Shown here: positions 37,397 to 63,211 of the stretch, in pieces
Position numbering within the stretch: the stretch's first letter is position 1
Layout: every line of letters begins with the position of its first letter
Source: Candidatus Gastranaerophilales bacterium
Lineage (GTDB): Bacteria > Cyanobacteriota > Vampirovibrionia > Gastranaerophilales > Gastranaerophilaceae
DNA: 64,000 nucleotides
Assembly: GCA_944324455.1 (NCBI GenBank)
Contig: CALUWJ010000005.1
Location: forward strand, 1 to 64,000
Direction: 5' to 3'
Made by a program: the position numbers and the translations under genes
Notes under the pieces: generated by a model
Told to the model about the DNA's origin: nothing
Database searches by the model: none
The model's input: the letters and a program-made list of their open reading frames with translations, nothing else

Positions 37397-38848
37397 CTAA
37401 ATTTTACCTAAAACTGTTAATTTATACTCAGGTGCAACTTCTTCAAAACAAATAGTTGGAATATCCATGAATAATTGAGAAACAAGAATGAATATAACTT
37501 GTCTGTATTGCTGCGGAGCAATTAAAACAGCACTTTGATTGATTAAATCTTCTTTTGTTTCTTTTAAGATTTTTTTAAATTTAGAAAATTTAGATAAGTC
37601 TATTTTAACGCTTGATTCTTCATTATTTGTTTGCTTTTCCAATAATTCTAAAGTGTCATTATCTATTTCATAAGCAAAAATTTCTTTATCTTTATTGGAT
37701 ACGCTTTGAGAAATTTGCCTTGACAATGCCATTCTTAACTTATCTAATAAATCTGCTTTATTTGGGTCGTCTGAAAAATCGTTTAATTTTTCAAAAATAT
37801 AGACAATATCTTTAATGCTAACTTTTTCTCTGATTAATTGACTTAAAAGATATTTAAGCTCTGAAATGCTTATATAATCACCCAAAATTGTATCGGTCAG
37901 AAAAGAATTTTGATTGCTGACAAATTCAATATATCTGTTTAAATCGTTATAATCAAAAATTTCTTCAACATGCGCAATAGCATAATAGCTTAAATAATTT
38001 GCTATGTATTCGCTTGCTTCAATTCCTTCTATCCAAAAGTTTTCGCATTGATTTTTTTCAATCCAGATGATTTTTCTTTTGGTTAAGGGGTCTTTTATTT
38101 TAAATGAATTTTTGGGTAATTTTTCAATATTTAATTCATCTTCAAAAAAAGCAAGATGATTAGGATATGCTTTTGAATTAACAACGCTAACCCCATGGAT
38201 ATTAATTGAAAAATCAAAGGCGTCTAGTGATGTGTTTTCAATAAATTGAACTTTTGGAATTATATAGCCAAGCCCATGGGTTAATTCTTGTCTTACTTTT
38301 ACTGTTTGAGATAAAAGATTTTTTTCAATTTTCGGATCACACAAAGAATAATTTTCACTTGAAAGGCTTATTGAAAGCTTTTCTTCTCCTAAAAATTTAA
38401 TCATTTTAGAGGGGGCTAAAACTTCTTTTAAGTCTTTTTTAAGATTGTTTAATTCATCAATGTCTTTTTTGATTTCATCGTTTAAAATTTCTCTTTCTTC
38501 ATCTTTTGATGTTTCAAGAAATTTTTTAACCCGTTCAATTTTATCTTTTTTATCTTTTATTTTCTTTTGTAAATTCAAACAAAGTTCATAGGGTTCTTCT
38601 TTTGAATATAACATTTTTTCAACAGAATTTCTGAAATTAATTATATCATCATTTTCTTCTGTTTCTTGATTTTCAACTTCTTTTACAAAAATGCAATTAT
38701 AAACTATTTTAGAATTTTGTTCTGCTTCATAAATTGAATACAACTCCCAGCCTGAAATAGACATGGCGTTAAGCGTATTTTCAAGTAAAAGCGCATCTTC
38801 TGTTGGGATTTGTTTAATAGAATATTCTTGTCTAAATTGCTTCATCAT
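37397..38848 (-). CDS. soluble FlhA cytoplasmic-domain paralogue with an N-terminal DUF4177-like domain
   Basis: 483 residues with no membrane segment. Residues 5-57 resemble a DUF4177-type fold (NAMSISGWELYSIY). Residues 85-145 form a Lys/Glu-rich coiled coil. From about 153 to the end it aligns with the cytosolic part of FlhA encoded at 53578-55662: LGYIIPKVQF against LGYIIPNIRI, and LIREKVSIKDIVYIFEKL against LIREKVSIKDVIFIFERL, then LRMALSRQI against LRAALGRQI. FlhA_C forms the export gate's ring that docks chaperone-substrate complexes. This copy lacks the eight-helix membrane half. It is far from the flagellar operon. Function is inferred only. Confidence 0.8.
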   Translation of the reverse strand: MMKQFRQEYSIKQIPTEDALLLENTLNAMSISGWELYSIYEAEQNSKIVYNCIFVKEVENQETEENDDIINFRNSVEKMLYSKEEPYELCLNLQKKIKDKKDKIERVKKFLETSKDEEREILNDEIKKDIDELNNLKKDLKEVLAPSKMIKFLGEEKLSISLSSENYSLCDPKIEKNLLSQTVKVRQELTHGLGYIIPKVQFIENTSLDAFDFSINIHGVSVVNSKAYPNHLAFFEDELNIEKLPKNSFKIKDPLTKRKIIWIEKNQCENFWIEGIEASEYIANYLSYYAIAHVEEIFDYNDLNRYIEFVSNQNSFLTDTILGDYISISELKYLLSQLIREKVSIKDIVYIFEKLNDFSDDPNKADLLDKLRMALSRQISQSVSNKDKEIFAYEIDNDTLELLEKQTNNEESSVKIDLSKFSKFKKILKETKEDLINQSAVLIAPQQYRQVIFILVSQLFMDIPTICFEEVAPEYKLTVLGKI

Positions 38849-41794: not shown

Positions 41795-43144
41795 TTATTG
41801 TGCTTTTTTTCTTAAAACAATAATGAATTTATCAATCAATTCGCTGAGCATAAGTGAAACTTTGCGATAATTTAAAATAGTAAAATCTACAGATTCTGTT
41901 TCAAAAAGTCTTTTTTGTTCATCATCAACAATGCTTAAACGAACTATGGCATTTTCAATGCCATCATATTCTATTGCCATTGAAGCATTAACTCCGTTAG
42001 CAGAAACACTAAACAATGATTTTGCTCCCGTGTAGGCGTTTATTGCAAAATCTTGTCTTTTTATTTTTAAAATATTTTCATATTTTTTAAATACGGGCGC
42101 AATAACAACTTTTAGTTTTCTTTGATATGCTTGGTTGAAAAGCTTTACGCTATTTTTATCAAAATTACTTTGAGCTTCATTTATTGGAGCTATTGGATTG
42201 TTTTTGTTTATAATTTTATTTTCTTTTTGTTTTTCTATAATATCTTTTGGTGTTTCAAATATAATTTTATTATCCGGTGTATTTGAATAAAAATCTGAAG
42301 CCACAATCAATGAATTAGTATTTTCATTTGCTTTTTCTAAAGCGGCATCTAAGGCTTCTTTGATATCTTCAAATTTTTGTTCTTGAACTTCAACAACACC
42401 TGCGTTAGCACCTGAATCAATACCAAGATTTGTGTTTATCCTCTCAAATACGCTATATGCTCCGTTTAGTTTTGTTTTTTGAAGATATACATAGAATTTG
42501 TCAACATCTTTTATTGCAATAGAATCATTTAAACGAATTGATTTTTTAATGATTTCTATAAATTCTTTCGGATTTTTATAGTTTGGATATTTTTTATCAG
42601 GAGAAATTAATAAAATACAAGCTCTTTGAGAGTATTTTCTTGTTTGAGCTATTTCGTTTTTCAAAAATTCATCACAATATTTTTGAGTATAAACTCCTGT
42701 ATCAGCTTGAACAACTCCAAGAGCAGTTAAGAAATTGGCTTGAGATTCAATGTTCATATTCAATTCATTTTTTTGTAAGCACCAAATAACTCTTATTAAT
42801 AGTTCATAATCAATAATAGGCATAAATAAAACATCGCTAATACCGTTATCAAATGCTTCAATAATAACTTCTCTTGAACAGTTTTCATTGATTAGAAGTA
42901 TTGGGAGGTTTTTATATATTTCTTGTTTTTTAAGGCTTTTTATTAAATTAATTGCTTGAATGTTGTTGTTATCGCAATGCAGAATTAAAACATTCGGGCT
43001 AAAACCGTCGAACATGTTTTGCGCTTCTTCAATTGAGCAGGATTTGATTTTATCAAGATTTCTTAATAATACCAATTTTTGAGAAATTTGGTTTATCAAC
43101 TCTTGTCTGTTGCTAACTATTACAACGGTATTTATATCTGCCAT
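41795..43144 (-). CDS. degenerate receiver plus degenerate GGDEF-type protein
   Basis: 449 residues. Residues 5-125 have the receiver pattern but lack the acidic pocket (SNRQE), and His56 replaces the phosphoacceptor Asp in VLILHCDNN. Residues 150-290 resemble a GGDEF fold without a GGDEF motif (GANAGVVEVQE aligns near its end). A third region (about 335-449) is an unassigned alpha/beta domain. It probably acts by protein contact, not by phosphorylation or c-di-GMP synthesis. The tail-anchored DUF4145-like gene follows directly. Confidence 0.7.
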   Translation of the reverse strand: MADINTVVIVSNRQELINQISQKLVLLRNLDKIKSCSIEEAQNMFDGFSPNVLILHCDNNNIQAINLIKSLKKQEIYKNLPILLINENCSREVIIEAFDNGISDVLFMPIIDYELLIRVIWCLQKNELNMNIESQANFLTALGVVQADTGVYTQKYCDEFLKNEIAQTRKYSQRACILLISPDKKYPNYKNPKEFIEIIKKSIRLNDSIAIKDVDKFYVYLQKTKLNGAYSVFERINTNLGIDSGANAGVVEVQEQKFEDIKEALDAALEKANENTNSLIVASDFYSNTPDNKIIFETPKDIIEKQKENKIINKNNPIAPINEAQSNFDKNSVKLFNQAYQRKLKVVIAPVFKKYENILKIKRQDFAINAYTGAKSLFSVSANGVNASMAIEYDGIENAIVRLSIVDDEQKRLFETESVDFTILNYRKVSLMLSELIDKFIIVLRKKAQ

Positions 43145-48904: not shown

Positions 48905-49050
48905 TTTAGTAAAAAATAATTAAATATTATATAAAAGTATTTGGCTTCCCTCTTAAAATATTTCCTAACTACTTTAAATGAATGATTTTTTGAAATTTAG
49001 TTTAATATAAAACTTTTAAGGTCGTGAAATAAAAGAGGGGAAAGGTGAAA

Positions 49051-49710
49051 ATGTTTAGTCCGCAATTGCAAAATTACATAAATTCTTCTTCTCAAGCTCA
49101 AGCGTTTAATCGTGTTAATGAGCTAAATCGCTATATTAATTCAATTTATCCTAAACAGCCTGAAGTTAATAAAACCTCTGCTTTTGATGAAATTTTAGCT
49201 GAATCTAAAAAAGAAGTTGAATCAAACAGTGTTTTTGAGCTTGATACTCCTCCAATGGTGAAAAAAGATATTAAAACTCTTCCTTTTGGCTCTTTAAGCG
49301 GATTAAGAGGAGCGGAAGAAAAAGTATCAAACACTAAAGAAGCAATTTTAGGTTATATTAAAGAAGCAAGTGAAAAATATGATGTAGATGAAAGATTAAT
49401 CAAAGCATTAATAAAACAAGAATCAAACTTTAATCCTAATGCTGTTTCATCAGTTGGCGCAAGGGGTTTAATGCAGTTAATGCCGCAGACAGCTAAGGCT
49501 TTAGGTGTTGTTAATTCTTTTAATCCTAAAGAAAATATTGATGGCGGAGTTAAATATTTAAAACAAATGCTTGATAAATACAATGGAAATAAAATTCTAG
49601 CTCTTGCTGCTTATAACGCTGGCCCTGGGGCTGTGGATAAATATAACGGCATTCCTCCTTATAAAGAAACTCAAAATTATGTTAAATCTGTGTTAGCTAA
49701 TTACCTATAA
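49051..49710 (+). CDS. lytic transglycosylase (SLT domain), flagellar-operon head
   Basis: 219 residues from the ATG at 49051, preceded by GAGGGG; a GTG two codons upstream is too close to it. The first 85 residues are polar and probably unstructured. The SLT domain (about 95-219) shows [14 protein letters not shown] with catalytic Glu124, [13 protein letters not shown], and AYNAGPGAV. It cuts peptidoglycan, likely making room for the flagellar rod. No clear signal peptide, so export would be by the flagellar pathway or another route. It is 12 bases upstream of fliE. Confidence 0.88.
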
Positions 49711-49722
49711 AGGAAATAAAAA

Positions 49723-50031
49723 ATGGATAAAATAAATCAAGTAAATTTTTTTAGAACGAACCGCATGGAACCTTTAGAAGCTAATATTTCAATTAGCTCT
49801 GATGATACAAACGTGAAAAGTTTTAAAAATGTTGTAGCTGATATGATGCAAGAATTAAATGAGGTTACAAATAAACCGGAACAATTAACACAAGACGCAA
49901 TGCTAGGTAAGGCAGATGTTCATGATGTTATGGCGGCAATTGCTCAAAGCGAGATTACAGTTCAAGCAGCAACTACCATTACAGGTAAAATCCTACAAAC
50001 GTATGAGAAAATAATGCAAATACAGATTTAG
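49723..50031 (+). CDS. fliE: flagellar hook-basal body protein FliE
   Basis: 102 residues. The C-terminal half matches FliE (VHDVMAAIAQSEITVQAATTI, then KILQTYEKIMQIQI), the adaptor between MS ring and rod. The N-terminal half is variable, as usual. AAAGGA precedes the ATG. The order transglycosylase, fliE, fliF is unusual because flgB and flgC, normally just upstream, are missing here. Confidence 0.9.
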   Translation: MDKINQVNFFRTNRMEPLEANISISSDDTNVKSFKNVVADMMQELNEVTNKPEQLTQDAMLGKADVHDVMAAIAQSEITVQAATTITGKILQTYEKIMQIQI

Positions 50032-50056
50032 TCTTAACTTTAGCATATTATGATAG

Positions 50057-50062
50057 TATAAT
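50057..50062 (+). promoter_or_regulatory. possible internal promoter before fliF
   Basis: TATAAT ends 17 bases before the fliF ATG in the 48-base fliE-fliF gap. There is no obvious Shine-Dalgarno for fliF. Confidence 0.35.
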
Positions 50063-50079
50063 TTAATTAATAGAACAGT

Positions 50080-51792
50080 ATGGAAAAATTTGACCTAAAA
50101 CAATTAACCGAAAATAAACCTCTTTTATACACTATAATAGCTGCGATAGTGGTTGTTGTAGTGATGGCTATTATTATGATATCGGTTATGGTGAGCGTTG
50201 GTTCAAATAATAACCAAGGGCAAGATAATAAAATAAAACAAGCGGAAAAAGTTATTAAAAATGACCCTGTTACTCTTTTTACAACTGAAAATACAGGAAA
50301 AGCCCTTGAGGTTCAGGCTCTTTTGGCTCGTGAACAAATTGTGGCAACAAAAGTTGATAATGGGTCAAAAGTTAGTATTGTATTAAAAGAATATACTCAA
50401 GACCAAAGAGATAGAGCGCTTTTGGCCATTGTTAAAAGCGGGCTTTTAGATGAGCATACAGGTTTAGAAATTTTTGATAAGGGTGATTTTACATCCACTA
50501 AAGATGATAAAAAAATTAAACTTATAAGAGCAATAAATGGCGAATTGGCAAGATTAATCAGAAAAATTCCGCCTATTGAAAATGCTCAAGTGTTTATTTC
50601 AATTCCTGAACAAACATTTTTCTCTCAAGACCAAAAACCAACGACAGCAACTGTTCAAATCACAATGCCGTCAGGTGAAAGATTGGATAACATGAAAGTA
50701 AAAGCAATTTCTAATTTGCTTTTAGGTGCTGTTCATGGGCTTCAAGCAGATAATATTTCAATAACTGATACCAATGGAACTGTTTATAATTCAATAATTG
50801 GTGCTTCTGATGATGCTATTGCAAAATTGGAAGAAAACGATAAATACATGCAATCAAAAGTTAATGCTCAATTGGATAAATTAATTGGTAAAGGTAATTA
50901 TATTGCCACTGTTTCAACATTCTTAACTCAAGCACCTGTTGAAAAAACAAGCATATTGTATGACCCTGAACAAAAAACATCTGTATCAGAACAACAATTC
51001 AGTGAAAACTTAGGCGATAATCATAATGATACAACTTCATCAGGCATGAATCCTGTTAGCGTTTATGTTCCAGATGGAGTAAAAGGAGCGGTGCAATCTG
51101 GTTCATCAAGCCAAGATAGGCAATATTCACGCTCTGCTGTTGAAACTCAATATGGTGTATCAAAAACACAAGTGAGCGAATTTACCCAAGCGGGTACAAT
51201 TGAAGAAATAACAGTTGCTGTTTCAATTGAAGAAAATTCAATTCCAACAAATATGAGTCTTTATGAATTAAAAACTTTAATCGCTCATGCTGCAAGCCCT
51301 AAAGTTGATCCTGAAAATGTTTCTATTGCTTTTGTTGAATCTAATAGCCTTGTTTTAGCGCCTGAAAAAGAAAATGAACTTCCAAAAGTTGAAGAATCAG
51401 GCAATCCTTGGTGGGTTGTTGGTTCAATGTTATTAATCGGGCTTATTTTGGGGCTTGGTCATATAGGTAAAAAAGTTAAAGATGAAGCAAGAAAACAAGA
51501 AGAAGAACTTGAATATTTAAGACAAATTGCTGCAAATCAAGAACAGCAGTTAAAAGATGTTACTCAGCAAGCTTCAAATTTAATAGCTCAACAAGAGCAA
51601 ATGGCGCAAAGTTTTATTGAACAAAAAAACCAATACGCTCTTGCCCTTGAGCAGGCTAAATCTGCTGCGGCAGTTACAAAAGCACCAAGACATAATTTGT
51701 CTGATGCTATTGATGAATTAGAATCTGATTTTAATTCCATGGATGAAAATGAAGCAATTGAAAATATAAAAAACTGGATTGAAAATGCCTAA
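50080..51792 (+). CDS. fliF: flagellar MS-ring protein FliF
   Basis: 570 residues, the family length. A membrane helix at about 16-40 precedes the YscJ/FliF domain (DPVTLFTTENTGKALEVQALL, ISIPEQTFFSQDQKPTTATVQI). Then come a FliF C-terminal domain and a second membrane helix (about 444-462, WWVVGSMLLIGLILGLG). A cytosolic coiled coil rich in Gln follows, with a C-terminal helix (LSDAIDELESDF) that should bind FliG. It forms the inner-membrane MS ring. Confidence 0.93.
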   Translation: MEKFDLKQLTENKPLLYTIIAAIVVVVVMAIIMISVMVSVGSNNNQGQDNKIKQAEKVIKNDPVTLFTTENTGKALEVQALLAREQIVATKVDNGSKVSIVLKEYTQDQRDRALLAIVKSGLLDEHTGLEIFDKGDFTSTKDDKKIKLIRAINGELARLIRKIPPIENAQVFISIPEQTFFSQDQKPTTATVQITMPSGERLDNMKVKAISNLLLGAVHGLQADNISITDTNGTVYNSIIGASDDAIAKLEENDKYMQSKVNAQLDKLIGKGNYIATVSTFLTQAPVEKTSILYDPEQKTSVSEQQFSENLGDNHNDTTSSGMNPVSVYVPDGVKGAVQSGSSSQDRQYSRSAVETQYGVSKTQVSEFTQAGTIEEITVAVSIEENSIPTNMSLYELKTLIAHAASPKVDPENVSIAFVESNSLVLAPEKENELPKVEESGNPWWVVGSMLLIGLILGLGHIGKKVKDEARKQEEELEYLRQIAANQEQQLKDVTQQASNLIAQQEQMAQSFIEQKNQYALALEQAKSAAAVTKAPRHNLSDAIDELESDFNSMDENEAIENIKNWIENA

Positions 51793-51814
51793 ATTTTGAG
51801 GGTAAAAAGGAAAA

Positions 51815-52768
51815 ATGGCACAAACTGATATAAAAACATTTAATTTTGAAGCTTTTGCCAAAGACTTGTCAAGCCAAGCAAGTCAAGTTATTCCTAATGA
51901 TATTTCAAAGCCTGATAAAGATTTTGTTGTTGAAATTATTTATCGTTTTTGCGTAATGGCGGGTGATGCTTTAGTTAAAGAAGAAAATTCTAAATTGAAT
52001 GCTCAAGAAGCAAGCCTTGTTACACAATTTATCGGAGAATGGATTTTTCATAAATCAATTGATTTAATTAGAGCAAAAATTGACCCTCAATATAGAGAAG
52101 GGGTCTTACAAAAAGTTGCATTTACGGTTTTTGATATAGCAAAAAAAGCTGTAGAAAAACAAATCCCGCAAGAACAATTAATATCCTTGGTTGAAGCACA
52201 GGTTAAAAAATCTTTTACAAAAGCCATGGAAGATTTAAAAAATAGAGGCGTAATATCAGAACAATTAACTCAAAATGCCTTAACTCAATCTAATATTGAC
52301 GCTATGGCTCAAGAACAAGTAAAAGAAGAAACTATGACAAATATCGCTGCTATGAGCGATGAAAAAATAATAAAACTTGCTTCATTGGCGATATTAATGA
52401 AGAATTTTTCAAGCGAAAAAATAAAAAATATTTTGCAAAAGTTTAATAAGCCTGAACGAGAAGTATTAATAAAATATCTAAAAATGCCTGATTTAGAGGA
52501 AAAATTAGACACAAAGGCTACTATGAGGTGTTTTGAGGAAATGAAAAGCGCATTACCTGAGACAGTTACAATAAGCTATGATAAAGCTTATAAAAAAATG
52601 TGTAAAATTGTTAAAAATTCGGATAAAAATCAAATTTTGAATATTATAGAAAATGAAAGACCAAATATTAAAGAATACGTTTTGTCTTGTTATGATAAAA
52701 AAAGAAAAAAACTTCCTGCACACATTGCAAATATAATATCTAAATATTTAGAAGAAAATGTTTCATGA
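51815..52768 (+). CDS. protein in the fliG position, divergent FliG candidate
   Basis: 317 residues, fully helical and soluble. It sits between fliF and fliH, where fliG (about 335 residues) normally is, and overlaps fliH by four bases. The usual FliG signatures (the EHPQT armadillo motif and the torque-helix charge pattern) are not visible. The C-terminal 120 residues (IIENERPNIKEYVLSCYDKK) have an armadillo-like helical look. It is either a very divergent switch protein or another basal-body component. FliG is a position-based inference only. Confidence 0.5.
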   Translation: MAQTDIKTFNFEAFAKDLSSQASQVIPNDISKPDKDFVVEIIYRFCVMAGDALVKEENSKLNAQEASLVTQFIGEWIFHKSIDLIRAKIDPQYREGVLQKVAFTVFDIAKKAVEKQIPQEQLISLVEAQVKKSFTKAMEDLKNRGVISEQLTQNALTQSNIDAMAQEQVKEETMTNIAAMSDEKIIKLASLAILMKNFSSEKIKNILQKFNKPEREVLIKYLKMPDLEEKLDTKATMRCFEEMKSALPETVTISYDKAYKKMCKIVKNSDKNQILNIIENERPNIKEYVLSCYDKKRKKLPAHIANIISKYLEENVS

Positions 52769-53577
52769 TAATTAGAAAACAAAATATTCAAAATAAAAAA
52801 ACTCAACAATCTTCTTCAAATAAAATTATTAAAAAGGGTAATATTATAAAAAAAGAAGATTTAATTTCTGATGTTGAGGATGTTTTAGAAAATGCGCAGG
52901 ATATTGAACCGAAAGCACCTGTTCAAAAGCCAAAAGTAAAAGAAGAAGTAATTGCTGAAAGTTTTGAAAAAATTGATATTTCATCAATCGAATTTAAAGA
53001 AAGAGTTGAAAGAAGACGAGGCGATAGAAGACGCGGCTATAGAAGAATAGATGAAAGGTCTTTGGTTTCAAGAGCTCAACAAGAAGCCCATTCAATTAAA
53101 GAACTGGCAGCAAGAGAAGGTTATCAAAACGGATTAAAAAAAGCACAAAATGAAGTTGAAGAAATAAAAGCTTCGCTGAATGAGTTTTTAGCTATGCGAG
53201 ATGAAATGTATGAAGAATTTTATCCTCATATTATGGAAATTGCTATGGAAATAGCTAAAAAAATCATTAAAAAAGAAGTAGATTTATCACAAGATGTACT
53301 AAAAAATATTATTATGTCTGTTTTAGATGAAATTCATTCTGATTGTGAAAAAGTAACAATAAAAGTAAATCCTGATGATGTTGAATTTGCAAGCGCATCA
53401 CTGCCTGAAATATTAAGTTCTAAAAATATTAGTGCAAAAATAGGCGTTGTAGCTGATGAAACAATTGAAAAAGGAAGCTGTTGTGTTGTTGCAAATAACG
53501 GAGTAATCGACGCTAATTTTAAAACACAGTTGGCAGTTTTACAAAGCGCTTTTGGAATTTATAAAGGAGGGGTTTAA
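52765..53577 (+). CDS. fliH: flagellar export stator protein FliH
   Basis: 270 residues. A long charged, Lys-rich N terminus (to about 85) includes an Arg-rich patch (ERVERRRGDRRRGYRR). A coiled coil (about 100-145) and the FliH/YscL globular domain (about 150-265: HIMEIAMEIAKKIIKKEV, ending VIDANFKTQLAVL) follow. It regulates the FliI ATPase and docks it to the export gate. fliI, normally the next gene, is absent, with flhA following directly. The GGAGGGG that ends this gene is the ribosome site of flhA. Confidence 0.88.
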   Translation: MIIRKQNIQNKKTQQSSSNKIIKKGNIIKKEDLISDVEDVLENAQDIEPKAPVQKPKVKEEVIAESFEKIDISSIEFKERVERRRGDRRRGYRRIDERSLVSRAQQEAHSIKELAAREGYQNGLKKAQNEVEEIKASLNEFLAMRDEMYEEFYPHIMEIAMEIAKKIIKKEVDLSQDVLKNIIMSVLDEIHSDCEKVTIKVNPDDVEFASASLPEILSSKNISAKIGVVADETIEKGSCCVVANNGVIDANFKTQLAVLQSAFGIYKGGV

Positions 53578-55662
53578 TTGGCTGCTCCTCAACAAAATTC
53601 TAATCCTGTTTCAGAAATTGCTTTAGCGGGTTTTGTCATTGTTTTAATATTGATTTTATTATTAGAAATGCCAAACTGGGTTATCAATTTTTCAATCAGT
53701 TTCAATATTACGCTTGGAATTGTTTTATTAATGATTTCATTATATGTTAATAAACCCCTTGAATTAGCGGCTTTTCCCTCTATTCTTTTGATTGGGACAG
53801 TTTTTAGGCTTGTTTTATCTATTGCGTCCACTCGTTTAATTTTAGCTAAAGGGGATGCAGGACAAGTTGTTGAAGCTTTTGGGCACTTTGTTACAGGCGG
53901 AAACATGGTTGTTGGCGGTGTAATTTTCTTAATTATTACTGTTGTGCAATTTATGGTTATTACAAAAGGTGCTGAACGCATAGCCGAAGTTTCAGCCAGA
54001 TTTGCACTGGACGCTATGCCAGGTAAACAAATGACAATTGACGCCGATTTTAATGCAGGGTTAATTTCTCCTGAAGAAGCAGTTAAAAGACGTGAAGATT
54101 TACAAAGAGAATCAAGCTTATATGGTTCAATGGATGGTGCTATGAAGTTTGTTAAAGGTGATACTATTGCAGGTATCATTATTACTTTAATCAACATCAT
54201 AGGCGGTTTAATTATCGGTATTTTATTAAACGGTATGGCTCCTGCTGATGCTATTCAAAAATATACCATTTTAACAATTGGTGATGGTTTAGCAGCACAA
54301 GTTCCATCTTTGTTAATGGCTATTTCATCAGGTATAGTGATGACCCGTGCAACAGGGGGCGGTGTTGCACTGGGTTCTGATTTGGCTATTGAAATTTTAT
54401 CCAAACCGACAAGTTTATTTTTGGCTTCAGGATTTTTGATTTTAATTGCCTTAACATCAGGAATTACAGGTTTGCCTTGGTTTCCTTTTTTAGTTTTTGC
54501 GACAATTTTAATATGCGGAGGGTTATCTGTTTTAGTAAATCAAGATGTTCAACAGCAATTGGGTCAATTGGACGCTGTTAAGCAAAATATGCAAGATTTA
54601 GTTAACCCTAATAAAATGTATGAAAGATTGGGTGTTGATGTTTTGTCTTTGCAAGTGGGTGCAGGGCTTTTAGTTATAGCAGATCCTGAACAAGATGGGC
54701 AACTATTAGCTAAAATTGCAGCGCTAAGACAAAGAGTAACGGATGATTTAGGCTATATTATTCCAAATATAAGAATTATGGACTCAAGTGCAATTGGAGA
54801 TAATGAATATTTAATTTCAATTCGCGGTAATCCTGTTGCAACGGGTACGGTTTACCCAGGAAAATTAATGGTTATAGCTGATCAATATGATTCATTAGGC
54901 AAAAAATTGCCTGATAATGCTATTGTTTCAGTTGAACCAACATTCCAATCTCAAGCTTATTGGCTAAATCCTCAACATATAGGAAAAAATGATAAAATCC
55001 AAGCGGTTGACGCTGTGGATGTAATTGTTACACATTTACAAGAATGCGTTCGAAAATATGTTGATGAAATTATGACAAAAACAGATGTCTTAAAATTAAT
55101 GGAGCTTGTTAAATCTCAAGACCCAACTTTGGTTAACGACCTTGTTCCTACAATCATTTCAACATCTGATTTAAGAAAGATTTTTGTAAATCTTATTAGA
55201 GAAAAGGTTTCAATTAAAGACGTAATATTTATCTTTGAAAGATTGTGTGATTATGCAAGATTTTCAAAAGAACCGGATATTTTATCTGAAAGATTAAGAG
55301 CAGCGCTAGGTAGACAAATTTGTCTTTCCAATGTTAATAAAGAAAAGGTTTTATATGCACTAACTCTTTCATCCGAATGGGAAAAAACGCTTGATGACAG
55401 CTGCCAAAGAACTGAATTGGGTACAATGTTTTTATTAAATCCAATGCAAGTCCAAGAGCTTATTGAATCAACCGCAAATACCCTAATGAGAGCGCAAAGT
55501 GCCGTTGGGGTGCAGCCTGTAATATTGTGTTCTCCAAGAATAAGATTGCCTTTATATCAAATGCTGGAGCGTCATATACCAACTATTGTTGTAATTTCGT
55601 ATTCTGAATTAATAACAGATATCAGAGTTGAAGCAATAGATACAATTGGAGAAGGCTATTAA
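53578..55662 (+). CDS. flhA: flagellar export gate protein FlhA
   Basis: 694 residues starting at a TTG immediately after the fliH stop, with GGAGGGG 6 bases before it; this start gives the usual family N terminus. It has eight membrane helices to about 315. The FHIPEP-family loop is present (DAMPGKQMTIDADFNAGLI and EEAVKRREDLQRESSLYG). The four-subdomain cytosolic part (about 345-694) contains LGYIIPNIRIMD and LIREKVSIKDVIFIFERL. FlhA couples the proton motive force to export and binds chaperones. A soluble paralogue of its C-terminal part lies at 37397-38848. Confidence 0.95.
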   Translation: MAAPQQNSNPVSEIALAGFVIVLILILLLEMPNWVINFSISFNITLGIVLLMISLYVNKPLELAAFPSILLIGTVFRLVLSIASTRLILAKGDAGQVVEAFGHFVTGGNMVVGGVIFLIITVVQFMVITKGAERIAEVSARFALDAMPGKQMTIDADFNAGLISPEEAVKRREDLQRESSLYGSMDGAMKFVKGDTIAGIIITLINIIGGLIIGILLNGMAPADAIQKYTILTIGDGLAAQVPSLLMAISSGIVMTRATGGGVALGSDLAIEILSKPTSLFLASGFLILIALTSGITGLPWFPFLVFATILICGGLSVLVNQDVQQQLGQLDAVKQNMQDLVNPNKMYERLGVDVLSLQVGAGLLVIADPEQDGQLLAKIAALRQRVTDDLGYIIPNIRIMDSSAIGDNEYLISIRGNPVATGTVYPGKLMVIADQYDSLGKKLPDNAIVSVEPTFQSQAYWLNPQHIGKNDKIQAVDAVDVIVTHLQECVRKYVDEIMTKTDVLKLMELVKSQDPTLVNDLVPTIISTSDLRKIFVNLIREKVSIKDVIFIFERLCDYARFSKEPDILSERLRAALGRQICLSNVNKEKVLYALTLSSEWEKTLDDSCQRTELGTMFLLNPMQVQELIESTANTLMRAQSAVGVQPVILCSPRIRLPLYQMLERHIPTIVVISYSELITDIRVEAIDTIGEGY

Positions 55663-60777: not shown

Positions 60778-61788
60778 TTTATCAACATCTAAAACTTGAT
60801 AAATTTCTCCGTCTTTTACAAATTCAAGCGTGCTTGTTTCTTCTTGCTTTTGCAGTTTATTTTGAATAATTTCTTCAAAATTGATGTTTAAGCTTTCACA
60901 GATTTCATCAGCTAAAATTCCTATTTTAAATTCATTTGAATTTAAAATAATTATGGTCGATTTTTCTTTTATGTGAGTTTTGGAGTTATTGAAAAATTTT
61001 CTTATATCAAGAACGGTTATATATTCCCCTTTTATGTTTGCAACTCCATAGATAAAATCAGGAGTAGAGGGGATTTTTATGAATTTTGTATTGTTTACTT
61101 TAAAAAATTCTTTAACACTTGCCATGTTAATATAATATTTTACATTATTAATAGAAAACGAAACTCCCATATCATATAATGGTGTATTTGTTTGAATATC
61201 TTGGGTTATTTTGGTTAAGAATTTTTTTCTTTCTTGGAGAGTTTTTTTAGAAATTTCATCATTAATTATATATTTTTCATTGTTTTCTTTGTTTAAATAT
61301 TTTTCGGGATTTTTTTTGATGTATTCTTCAATAGCGTCTATATTTAAAATATAAACATCTTTTTCGTTTTCCATAAAAACACCTTTGTAGAGACTGTTTT
61401 GTGTCATATATGGAATATCTTTTATTTTTGAGAGGTTTATTTTTTTAACATCAACCACATTATCACAAATTAGTGCAGTGGTTGATTTTTCGGTTTTTAT
61501 AACAAGAATTTTTGCACTTAAATTATAAGTTATTCTTTCATTTTTTAATATTTCTCTTAAATCAATAACGGCTATTGGAGTTTGCTCGTATTCCATTATT
61601 CCTAAAATGCAAGAGGGAAGATTATAAGGATAATCCAATTCCATTATTTTTACAATCTCAAGCACATTTTTTGTTTCAATAGCATAAATTTTTTTATCTA
61701 TTTCTATAAGAGTATATATTTCATTTTCTTCTTTTTGAATTTCTTGAAGAAGACTATTGGGTTGAAGTGTCAGATTACTGTCTGTCAT
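60745..61788 (-). CDS. tandem CheW-domain protein
   Basis: 347 residues with two CheW domains: about 22-155 (YTLIEIDKKIYAIETKNVLEIV, then PIAVIDLREIL) and about 200-345 (VSFSINNVKYYINMASVKEFF, then TVLDIRKFF). They are joined by a charged linker. CheW couples chemoreceptors to CheA; tandem forms can bridge arrays. Its start overlaps the receiver/GGDEF gene by 14 bases. The chemoreceptor gene is on the other side of that gene. No cheA is in the window. Confidence 0.85.
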   Translation of the reverse strand: MTDSNLTLQPNSLLQEIQKEENEIYTLIEIDKKIYAIETKNVLEIVKIMELDYPYNLPSCILGIMEYEQTPIAVIDLREILKNERITYNLSAKILVIKTEKSTTALICDNVVDVKKINLSKIKDIPYMTQNSLYKGVFMENEKDVYILNIDAIEEYIKKNPEKYLNKENNEKYIINDEISKKTLQERKKFLTKITQDIQTNTPLYDMGVSFSINNVKYYINMASVKEFFKVNNTKFIKIPSTPDFIYGVANIKGEYITVLDIRKFFNNSKTHIKEKSTIIILNSNEFKIGILADEICESLNINFEEIIQNKLQKQEETSTLEFVKDGEIYQVLDVDKLLQEDKLTIC

Positions 61789-63211
61789 TTTTAATTACCA
61801 CCTTTTCATTTAGGGCTTCATTATATGCCTTTTGAGCAATTTTTTGGGCTTCGTGGATATTATAGCTTCCATCTATCATGCAATCTGCTGCAGTAATAAT
61901 TGCTTCAACGCTATATTCATTGTAGTTAATTTTATTTAATAGTGCATATAATGATTTTAATCTGCTTTTTAATTCTTTTTCGTCTTTGGTGAACATTATT
62001 ATTGCGTATTCATCTTCGTAGTTTTTGTGAATTTGTTCATTTTTATTTATCGTACTGATTATTTTTTCTGATATTTTTGAATTTATAATATCAAGATTTT
62101 CTGTTGATAATTCGTCTTTCAACTGTTGAAAATTAACTACATCAACAATAACAAGAAATATGTGGTTGTTTTCTAAAAGCGCATTTTCAATTTTGTTAAA
62201 AAAATTTAATTCCGTTTTATTTAGAGAGTATTTTTTTTGAGAGCCTTTTTTTGTGTAAGAAAATTTATTAACATATCTTGCTATGAAGAATTTTTCTAAA
62301 ACATCTTTTAGAATTAAAATGTTTTCTTCATCTTGCCATTTTTCTTCTTCAAAAGAAAAAAAGCATACTTCTGCCATTTTTTTGTTTAAATGTTGAAAAT
62401 TAAGCTCTATTTTTGAATTAAATTCTTCAAGATTTACAACGGTTTTTGAATGAGGGGCGTAAGTTTTAAAAAGTGTATTATTTTTAGCTTTATATTTGTG
62501 TAGAATGCTATTTTGAAATATTGGACTTAAAATAATATCTCTAATATCTAAATATACTTTTTCTTCTTTTTTTTCAAACGAATGAACTGAAACAAGCCCC
62601 AAGTCGTATTTTAGCAGGGGATATAGAATGTTGAAAAAATTTTTTGCTATTTCTTCATCATCCAATGTGAAGTCATAAAGTTTTTTAAAGGCAAGTTTTA
62701 GTTCATCTTCATTGATTTTTTGAATTTCTTCTTGAATAATTTCTTCTTCTTCATTTGATGTTTCAATATCTTCCGTTTCATCAGTTTGAGTTTGAGAAGA
62801 TGATTGTTCTAAAATTTGATTTTTATATTCTTCAGTCAAAGGGTGGTCAATTATTGCTTTTTGGGCTAATTCAAGAAGAGAATTTATATTATCGCTTTTG
62901 GTCAAAAAATATTCATTAATATCATCTTGAAGATAGTATCTGGCATGTTTAACATCAAGAATACTATATACGATTACAGGAATTTTTGATATAGCAGGGT
63001 TTTCTTTAATGGATTTAACAAGTTTAAACCCTCCAATTAGAGGCATGATTGCATCTGTAATAATTAAATCAGGTGCAATATCAAAAATCATTTCGTATCC
63101 GATTCTTGCATTTTGAGCACTATACACTTCCCAATTATTTTTAGCAAGAATGGTTTTTAAAAGATTTAATTGGGTGCTGCTATCATCTATAATGATTACT
63201 TTTTTTATCAT
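61775..63211 (-). CDS. response receiver plus degenerate GGDEF-type protein
   Basis: 478 residues. The receiver (1-118) is intact: Asp9-Asp10, phosphoacceptor Asp53 in ITDAIMP, a Ser in VYSILD and Lys in LTKSD. A Glu/Gln-rich linker (about 140-180) leads to an unassigned middle domain and a GGDEF-like C terminus (about 345-465) with NYEDEYAIIMF in place of GGDEF. It is unlikely to make c-di-GMP. It is coupled to the tandem-CheW gene, so it probably acts in chemosensory signalling. Confidence 0.82.
   Translation of the reverse strand: MIKKVIIIDDSSTQLNLLKTILAKNNWEVYSAQNARIGYEMIFDIAPDLIITDAIMPLIGGFKLVKSIKENPAISKIPVIVYSILDVKHARYYLQDDINEYFLTKSDNINSLLELAQKAIIDHPLTEEYKNQILEQSSSQTQTDETEDIETSNEEEEIIQEEIQKINEDELKLAFKKLYDFTLDDEEIAKNFFNILYPLLKYDLGLVSVHSFEKKEEKVYLDIRDIILSPIFQNSILHKYKAKNNTLFKTYAPHSKTVVNLEEFNSKIELNFQHLNKKMAEVCFFSFEEEKWQDEENILILKDVLEKFFIARYVNKFSYTKKGSQKKYSLNKTELNFFNKIENALLENNHIFLVIVDVVNFQQLKDELSTENLDIINSKISEKIISTINKNEQIHKNYEDEYAIIMFTKDEKELKSRLKSLYALLNKINYNEYSVEAIITAADCMIDGSYNIHEAQKIAQKAYNEALNEKVVIKNDRQ

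What the first reader, a model, noticed from the sequence alone, without database searches (positions are those of the whole stretch)
37397..38848. Stand-alone soluble paralogue of the FlhA cytoplasmic domain fused to a DUF4177-like domain
Seen: from about residue 153 the protein aligns along its whole length with the cytosolic part of the FlhA in the same window (LGYIIP, LIREKVSIKD-IFEKL and LRMALSRQI blocks), but it has no membrane helices. In their place are a small domain and a coiled coil. Known: FlhA_C forms a ring that docks chaperone-substrate complexes and sets substrate order. Inference: a free copy could act as a decoy, an alternative docking platform or a regulator of export. I know of no described system with this architecture.
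Basis: partly seen in the sequence, partly recalled or inferred. Interest (0 to 1): 0.82.

Follow-up and report, generated by a model that had tools for sequence, protein, structure and literature searches.

The report
Soluble stand-alone FlhA export-gate paralogue
Almost every gut cyanobacterial relative of the order Gastranaerophilales carries a free-floating copy of the docking half of the protein-export gate FlhA, with a new head in place of the membrane half; it goes with a second, rotor-less export machine rather than with the flagellum, and I found no description of it.

Summary
Window 37397-38848(-) encodes a 483-aa protein whose residues ~146-483 are a complete FlhA cytoplasmic domain (Pfam FHIPEP 321-656/657; best solved-structure match FlhA_C). 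It has no membrane half. A DUF4177-like domain and a coiled-coil hairpin stand in its place. It is not an assembly artefact: 283 of 286 sampled Gastranaerophilales genomes have it, dN/dS is ~0.04, and it was not found in sister orders. The host has two complete flagellar-type export systems, and the FlhA in this window belongs to the second, divergent one, with its own FliF, FlhB and FliOPQR. Relatives that lost flagellin, FlhA-1 and FliG keep this second system, and nearly all keep the soluble protein, whose domain branches with FlhA-2. So it is not tied to the flagellum. The GYXLI switch and hydrophobic chaperone dimple of FlhA_C are replaced by polar or charged residues, so a simple chaperone decoy is unlikely. 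The linker peptide that locks FlhA_C rings is kept (Pro 41/41, Met 39/41). Best reading: an accessory soluble subunit docking on the FlhA-2 ring as an adaptor or sorter. Function is untested.

The parts
37397..38848 (-). Soluble FlhA_C paralogue (here called SOL), 483 aa, stand-alone gene
38669..38848 (-). N-terminal DUF4177-like domain, residues 1-60, fold beta-alpha-beta-beta, motif LLN.MS..GWELY...E......NCIF
   Evidence: AlphaFold2 pLDDT 93; PF13783 in 19 of 21 members, best E 4e-5
38420..38593 (-). Antiparallel coiled-coil hairpin, residues 86-143, after a disordered stretch (61-84)
   Evidence: AlphaFold2 helices 86-113 and 116-143
38387..38413 (-). Retained FlhA_L-type linker peptide, residues 146-154 (P-x-x-M-aromatic)
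   Evidence: P146 in 41/41, M149 in 39/41, an aromatic within 148-152 in 39/41; aligned with NPNKMYERLGV of FlhA-2
37400..38386 (-). FlhA_C domain D1-D4, residues 155-483
53578..55662 (+). FlhA-2, full-length export-gate protein of the second export system; nearest full-length relative of SOL (29% over the C domain)
49045..49710 (+). Lytic transglycosylase (SLT) of the second-system cluster
49723..50031 (+). FliE of the second system
   Evidence: PF02049 E 1e-15
50080..51792 (+). FliF-2 (MS-ring) of the second system
   Evidence: PF01514 E 4e-36; two FliF in the genome
51815..52768 (+). Unknown conserved protein in the place where FliG usually lies; no significant Pfam or PDB match
52765..53577 (+). 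FliH of the second system
   Evidence: PF02108 E 9.6e-23

Best explanation
[quoted passage not shown] It lost the membrane half and acquired a DUF4177-like head and a coiled-coil hairpin. Most likely it works as a soluble accessory gate subunit: its FlhA_C framework and retained linker peptide let it join or stack on the FlhA-2 ring (or form its own ring beneath it), while the head and coiled coil recruit or sort a partner, such as a substrate, a chaperone or the ATPase stalk, for that machine. Shown: fold, architecture, descent from the FlhA-2 side of the family, near-universality in the order, purifying selection, loss of the chaperone dimple and switch motif, retention of the linker peptide. 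Inferred: ring docking, the partner and the sorting role.
For: Fold and architecture. In the C-domain tree SOL is one clade (ultrafast bootstrap 92, including one truncated copy) inside a 100-supported group with FlhA-2 of this and sister orders; FlhA-1 lies outside. Present in 283 of 286 order genomes, not found in 42 sister-order genomes that do have FlhA. Relatives without flagellin, FlhA-1 and FliG keep FlhA-2 and, in most cases, SOL. The linker peptide in which Trp350 of Vibrio FlhA locks into the neighbouring subunit (PMC8213127) is retained: P146 41/41, M149 39/41, aromatic 39/41. D1/D3 framework residues R391, G399, P403, D508, E559, R579 and D4 residues R655, E676 are kept. dN/dS 0.035-0.054, with the head most constrained in dN.
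Against: The gene is not linked to second-system genes outside its own genus in the loci read and has no conserved neighbours. Three order genomes have FlhA-2 but no SOL (G029, G030, G334), and three have SOL but no FlhA-2 found (G242, G329, G346); gaps in assemblies may explain some. Because the second system is present in all order members sampled, co-occurrence has little power. D4 of SOL keeps only 5 of 48 FlhA-2-invariant positions and D3 12 of 43, so a shared ring interface is not assured. No coordinates of a ring were available to test it.
Confidence: 0.45

Rival explanations
1. SOL has left export altogether: its FlhA_C fold and head form a self-assembled cytoplasmic scaffold or regulator with an unrelated job.
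For: Orphan gene with no conserved neighbours; long branch (1.1 substitutions per site) at the base of the clade; switch motif and dimple lost; the head gives weak Foldseek similarity (E 6e-3 to 3e-2) to self-assembling dodecins and KCTD C-terminal domains.
Against: Found only in lineages with the FlhA-2 system; the linker peptide that serves ring docking is kept; FlhA_C framework residues are kept.
Confidence: 0.22
2. Regulator: the DUF4177-like head senses a ligand or a partner, and SOL binds the gate only in one state and so switches export on or off or changes substrate class.
For: Head strongly conserved with invariant L26, N27, W34, Y37, E41, C52, I53, F54; in FlhA the linker peptide is itself a switch element (PMC10965912).
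Against: No ligand or partner known; DUF4177 has no assigned function; nothing here tests sensing.
Confidence: 0.15
3. Decoy: free SOL binds chaperone-substrate complexes in place of FlhA and thereby limits export.
For: It is a soluble FlhA_C fold, and Asp456 of the dimple is kept in 23 of 24.
Against: Leu461, which with Asp456 is essential for FliT binding (PMC5932034), is mostly Arg, Glu, Lys or Gln; Phe459 is mostly Thr, Ser or Asn; Thr490 is mostly charged or polar; GYXLI Gly368 is Ser in 23 of 24. It persists in genomes without flagellin.
Confidence: 0.08
4. Spare part: SOL can replace the FlhA-2 cytoplasmic domain, as H. pylori HP1575 (FlhX) can for FlhB.
For: Precedent: a stand-alone FlhB C-domain homologue acts as a spare part (Wand 2006, title seen).
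Against: SOL is only 29% identical to FlhA-2 and lacks most of its invariant residues, while FlhA-2 itself stays 79% identical between families.
Confidence: 0.05

Closest known systems
FlhA / SctV (FHIPEP family), cytoplasmic domain
   Same: Same four-subdomain fold, linker peptide and framework residues; significant profile and structure matches
   Different: No membrane half; extra head and coiled coil; chaperone dimple and GYXLI motif lost; encoded alone
FlhX / HP1575 of Helicobacter pylori (stand-alone FlhB C-domain paralogue)
   Same: A stand-alone cytoplasmic-domain paralogue of an export-gate membrane protein
   Different: Derived from FlhB, not FlhA; no fused head known to me; tied to the flagellum
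Myxococcal non-flagellar T3SS without secretin (Abby and Rocha 2012, PMC3459982)
   Same: Like the second system here: export core without FliG or filament, so presumably not motile
   Different: The Myxo systems also lack FliE, FlgB and FlgC, whereas the second system here keeps FliE (window) and rod-type proteins (seen in G045); it is in Cyanobacteriota; I know of no soluble FlhA_C copy in Myxo systems
DUF4177 (PF13783) small proteins
   Same: beta-alpha-beta-beta head with a GWEL-type motif; weak Pfam matches in most members
   Different: The two weak head matches seen elsewhere in the phylum are small open frames of about 80-110 aa, not fused to FlhA_C

Membership tests
FHIPEP family (FlhA/SctV), cytoplasmic domain | Significant match to the C-terminal half of PF00771 | tested here: met
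   E 4.8e-44, positions 321-656/657; all 41 aligned members match
FHIPEP family (FlhA/SctV), cytoplasmic domain | FlhA_C fold with D1-D4 | tested here: met
   AlphaFold2 model, Foldseek to 6ch2/3a5i/7amy E down to 6e-21
FlhA as a complete export-gate protein | N-terminal membrane domain with the FHIPEP motif | tested here: not met
   Absent; DUF4177-like head instead; no membrane segment. So it is not an FlhA, only an FlhA_C-domain protein
FlhA_C chaperone-docking platform | Hydrophobic dimple (L438, I440, P442, F459, L461, V482, V487 around D456 and T490) and GYXLI motif | tested here: not met
   Of the key positions only D456 is firmly kept; G368 to S in 23/24, F459 to T/S/N, L461 to R/E/K/Q, T490 variable
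FlhA_C ring subunit | Linker peptide with a hydrophobic residue that docks on the neighbour | tested here: met
   P146 41/41, M149 39/41, aromatic within 148-152 in 39/41; the motif is present, docking itself was not tested
FlhA_C ring subunit | Formation of a nonameric ring | not testable with these tools
   No multimer prediction and no ring coordinates available
DUF4177 (PF13783) | Profile match above the curated cut-off | tested here: inconclusive
   19/21 isolated heads match at E up to 0.1, best 4e-5; window copy not among them; cut-off not shown for members
Flagellar export protein (flagellum-dependent) | Lost together with the flagellum | tested here: not met
   Kept in G010, G028, G033, G034, which have no flagellin, FlhA-1 or FliG

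The most novel reading that the evidence does not exclude
Gastranaerophilales carry a previously unrecognised rotor-less and filament-less type III export machine of flagellar ancestry, and SOL is a new kind of gate component of it: a soluble second FlhA_C ring or cap whose DUF4177-like head, not the classical chaperone dimple, selects what is exported.
Probability: 0.27. Interest if true: 0.85.

Novelty: new variant of a known kind. Interest (0 to 1): 0.64.

Why it matters
FlhA_C is thought to set substrate order in flagellar and related type III export, always as part of the membrane gate. A soluble, nearly universal, strongly constrained copy with another head shows that the docking half can be detached and reused, and gives a natural experiment on what the fold does without the dimple and switch. 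It also draws attention to a second, apparently non-motile export machine in a major gut lineage. Soo et al. 2014 read the incomplete flagellar gene sets of this order as loss of flagella (PMC4040986); the data here say that the genes left over in such genomes include a complete separate export core.

Tried and rejected
Assembly split of a full FlhA: rejected, same architecture in 283 genomes. Duplicate of the flagellar FlhA: rejected, the tree joins SOL to FlhA-2. Conserved neighbourhood as a clue to function: none outside the genus. Another protein with the same head in the genome, which might name the partner: none in G000 or G033. PDB sequence search with the head: nothing; fold search with the head: only weak dodecin/KCTD-like similarity, no E below 0.001. 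Mapping SctV ring salt bridges from PMC8635156 onto SOL: not done, residue numbers could not be placed safely without the SsaV sequence. Search for the same architecture in other phyla: the tool took no named genome as centre, so spread beyond Cyanobacteriota is untested; within the phylum the head was found fused only in this order.

Full report
What was claimed and what is there. The ORF at 37397-38848 on the minus strand is real. Residues 129-475 match Pfam FHIPEP only over its cytoplasmic half (321-656/657, E 4.8e-44). A profile of 41 orthologues finds FlhA_C and SctV_C structures in PDB down to E 8e-48, and the AlphaFold2 model (pLDDT 82) matches FlhA_C structures. Before it come a beta-alpha-beta-beta head (residues 5-59), a low-confidence, probably disordered stretch (61-84) and a coiled-coil hairpin (86-143). 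The head alone models at pLDDT 93 and matches DUF4177 in 19 of 21 members, weakly. No membrane segment is present.

Organism. Close orthologues come from records titled Candidatus Gastranaerophilales, the gut order of the non-photosynthetic class once called Melainabacteria.

Two export systems. The genome has three FHIPEP proteins, two FliP, two FliF and two FlhB. System A is the canonical flagellar set: FliPQR, FlhB and FlhA-1 together on contig 2 (gene names from order and family searches), FliF-1 and the only FliG on contig 5 outside the window. System B comprises SLT, FliE, FliF-2, an unknown protein, FliH and FlhA-2 in the window, a double-SpoA protein with FliO, FliP-2, FliQ-2 and FliR-2 on contig 13, and FlhB-2 on contig 6. 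In G045 the same cluster has rod-type proteins before it and a FliI-type ATPase behind FlhA-2. Genomes G010, G028, G033 and G034 have no flagellin, no FlhA-1 and no FliG, and keep system B with SOL (G034 also has a second, weak FliF-like hit). System B therefore stands alone without rotor and filament. Di Rienzi et al. listed two flhA genes in one genome and a gut genome without filament genes (PMC3787301), and Soo et al. read such sets as loss of flagella (PMC4040986); neither, in the passages read, separates a second system.

Distribution of SOL. Of 382 class genomes searched, 328 have FHIPEP matches; I count 42 of these in sister orders, leaving 286 in the order, of which 283 have SOL at E below 1e-130 (counts made by hand from the table). 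The exceptions G029, G030 and G334 have FlhA-2 only. Three others (G242, G329, G346) show SOL but no FlhA-2, although FliP-2 is present; this may be incompleteness. The head was not found in sister-order genomes. In the rest of the phylum two weak hits are to small open frames of about 80-110 aa.

Origin. In an LG+F+R4 tree of the C domains FlhA-1 and the FlhA-2 group separate (98), and SOL (92) falls with FlhA-2 of this order and of sister orders in a group of support 100. The SOL stem is long (1.1), so the exact attachment is uncertain. At least two origins of detached FlhA_C seem needed; some of these short ones may be decaying copies.

Selection. Against four near relatives dN/dS is 0.035-0.054, and dN is lowest in the head (synonymous sites are near saturation). 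Invariant residues are spread over head, coiled coil and FlhA_C.

Function from residues. In Salmonella the dimple around D456 and T490 receives chaperones, D456 and L461 being essential for FliT (PMC5932034), and GYXLI drives domain motion (PMC10965912). FlhA-2 of this order keeps D456, V482, V487, T490 and an aromatic at 459. SOL firmly keeps only D456 (23/24); G368 is Ser, R370 Glu, F459 mostly Thr/Ser/Asn, L461 charged or polar, T490 variable. A chaperone decoy is thus unlikely. The linker peptide that docks on the neighbour in rings (Trp350 of Vibrio FlhA; PMC8213127) is kept as P-x-x-M plus an aromatic.

Conclusion. SOL is an FlhA_C-domain protein but not an FlhA. Best reading: soluble accessory subunit of the system B gate (0.45), with a scaffold or a regulator role as main rivals. 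The contact with FlhA-2 is inferred, not shown.

Noticed in passing
window 49045-55662; L114 7317-11085; G000:C6:48883-49908: A complete second flagellar-type export core (system B) spread over at least three loci, kept when flagellin, FlhA-1 and FliG are lost; possibly a non-flagellar secretion system. This may be the larger finding.
   Followed up: partly
window 51815-52768; L043 6492-7055 and 7066-8025: Conserved protein between FliF-2 and FliH, where FliG usually lies, without significant Pfam or PDB match; G045 has two tandem copies.
   Followed up: partly
L114 7317-8576: 419-aa protein with two FliMN_C (SpoA) stretches next to FliO, FliP-2, FliQ-2 and FliR-2.
   Followed up: no
L106 5472-7001; L100 5295-6956: FlhA_C domains carried by a single hydrophobic N-terminal segment or a small membrane region instead of the full FlhA membrane half.
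   Followed up: partly
L105 6998-7867 and 7994-10114: A 289-aa FlhA_C-like protein encoded directly behind flhA-2 in a sister order (G086).
   Followed up: no
window 41795-43144 and 61775-63211: Two proteins with a receiver-like domain and a degenerate GGDEF-like end, the GGDEF part (and one receiver) below the Pfam cut-off.
   Followed up: no
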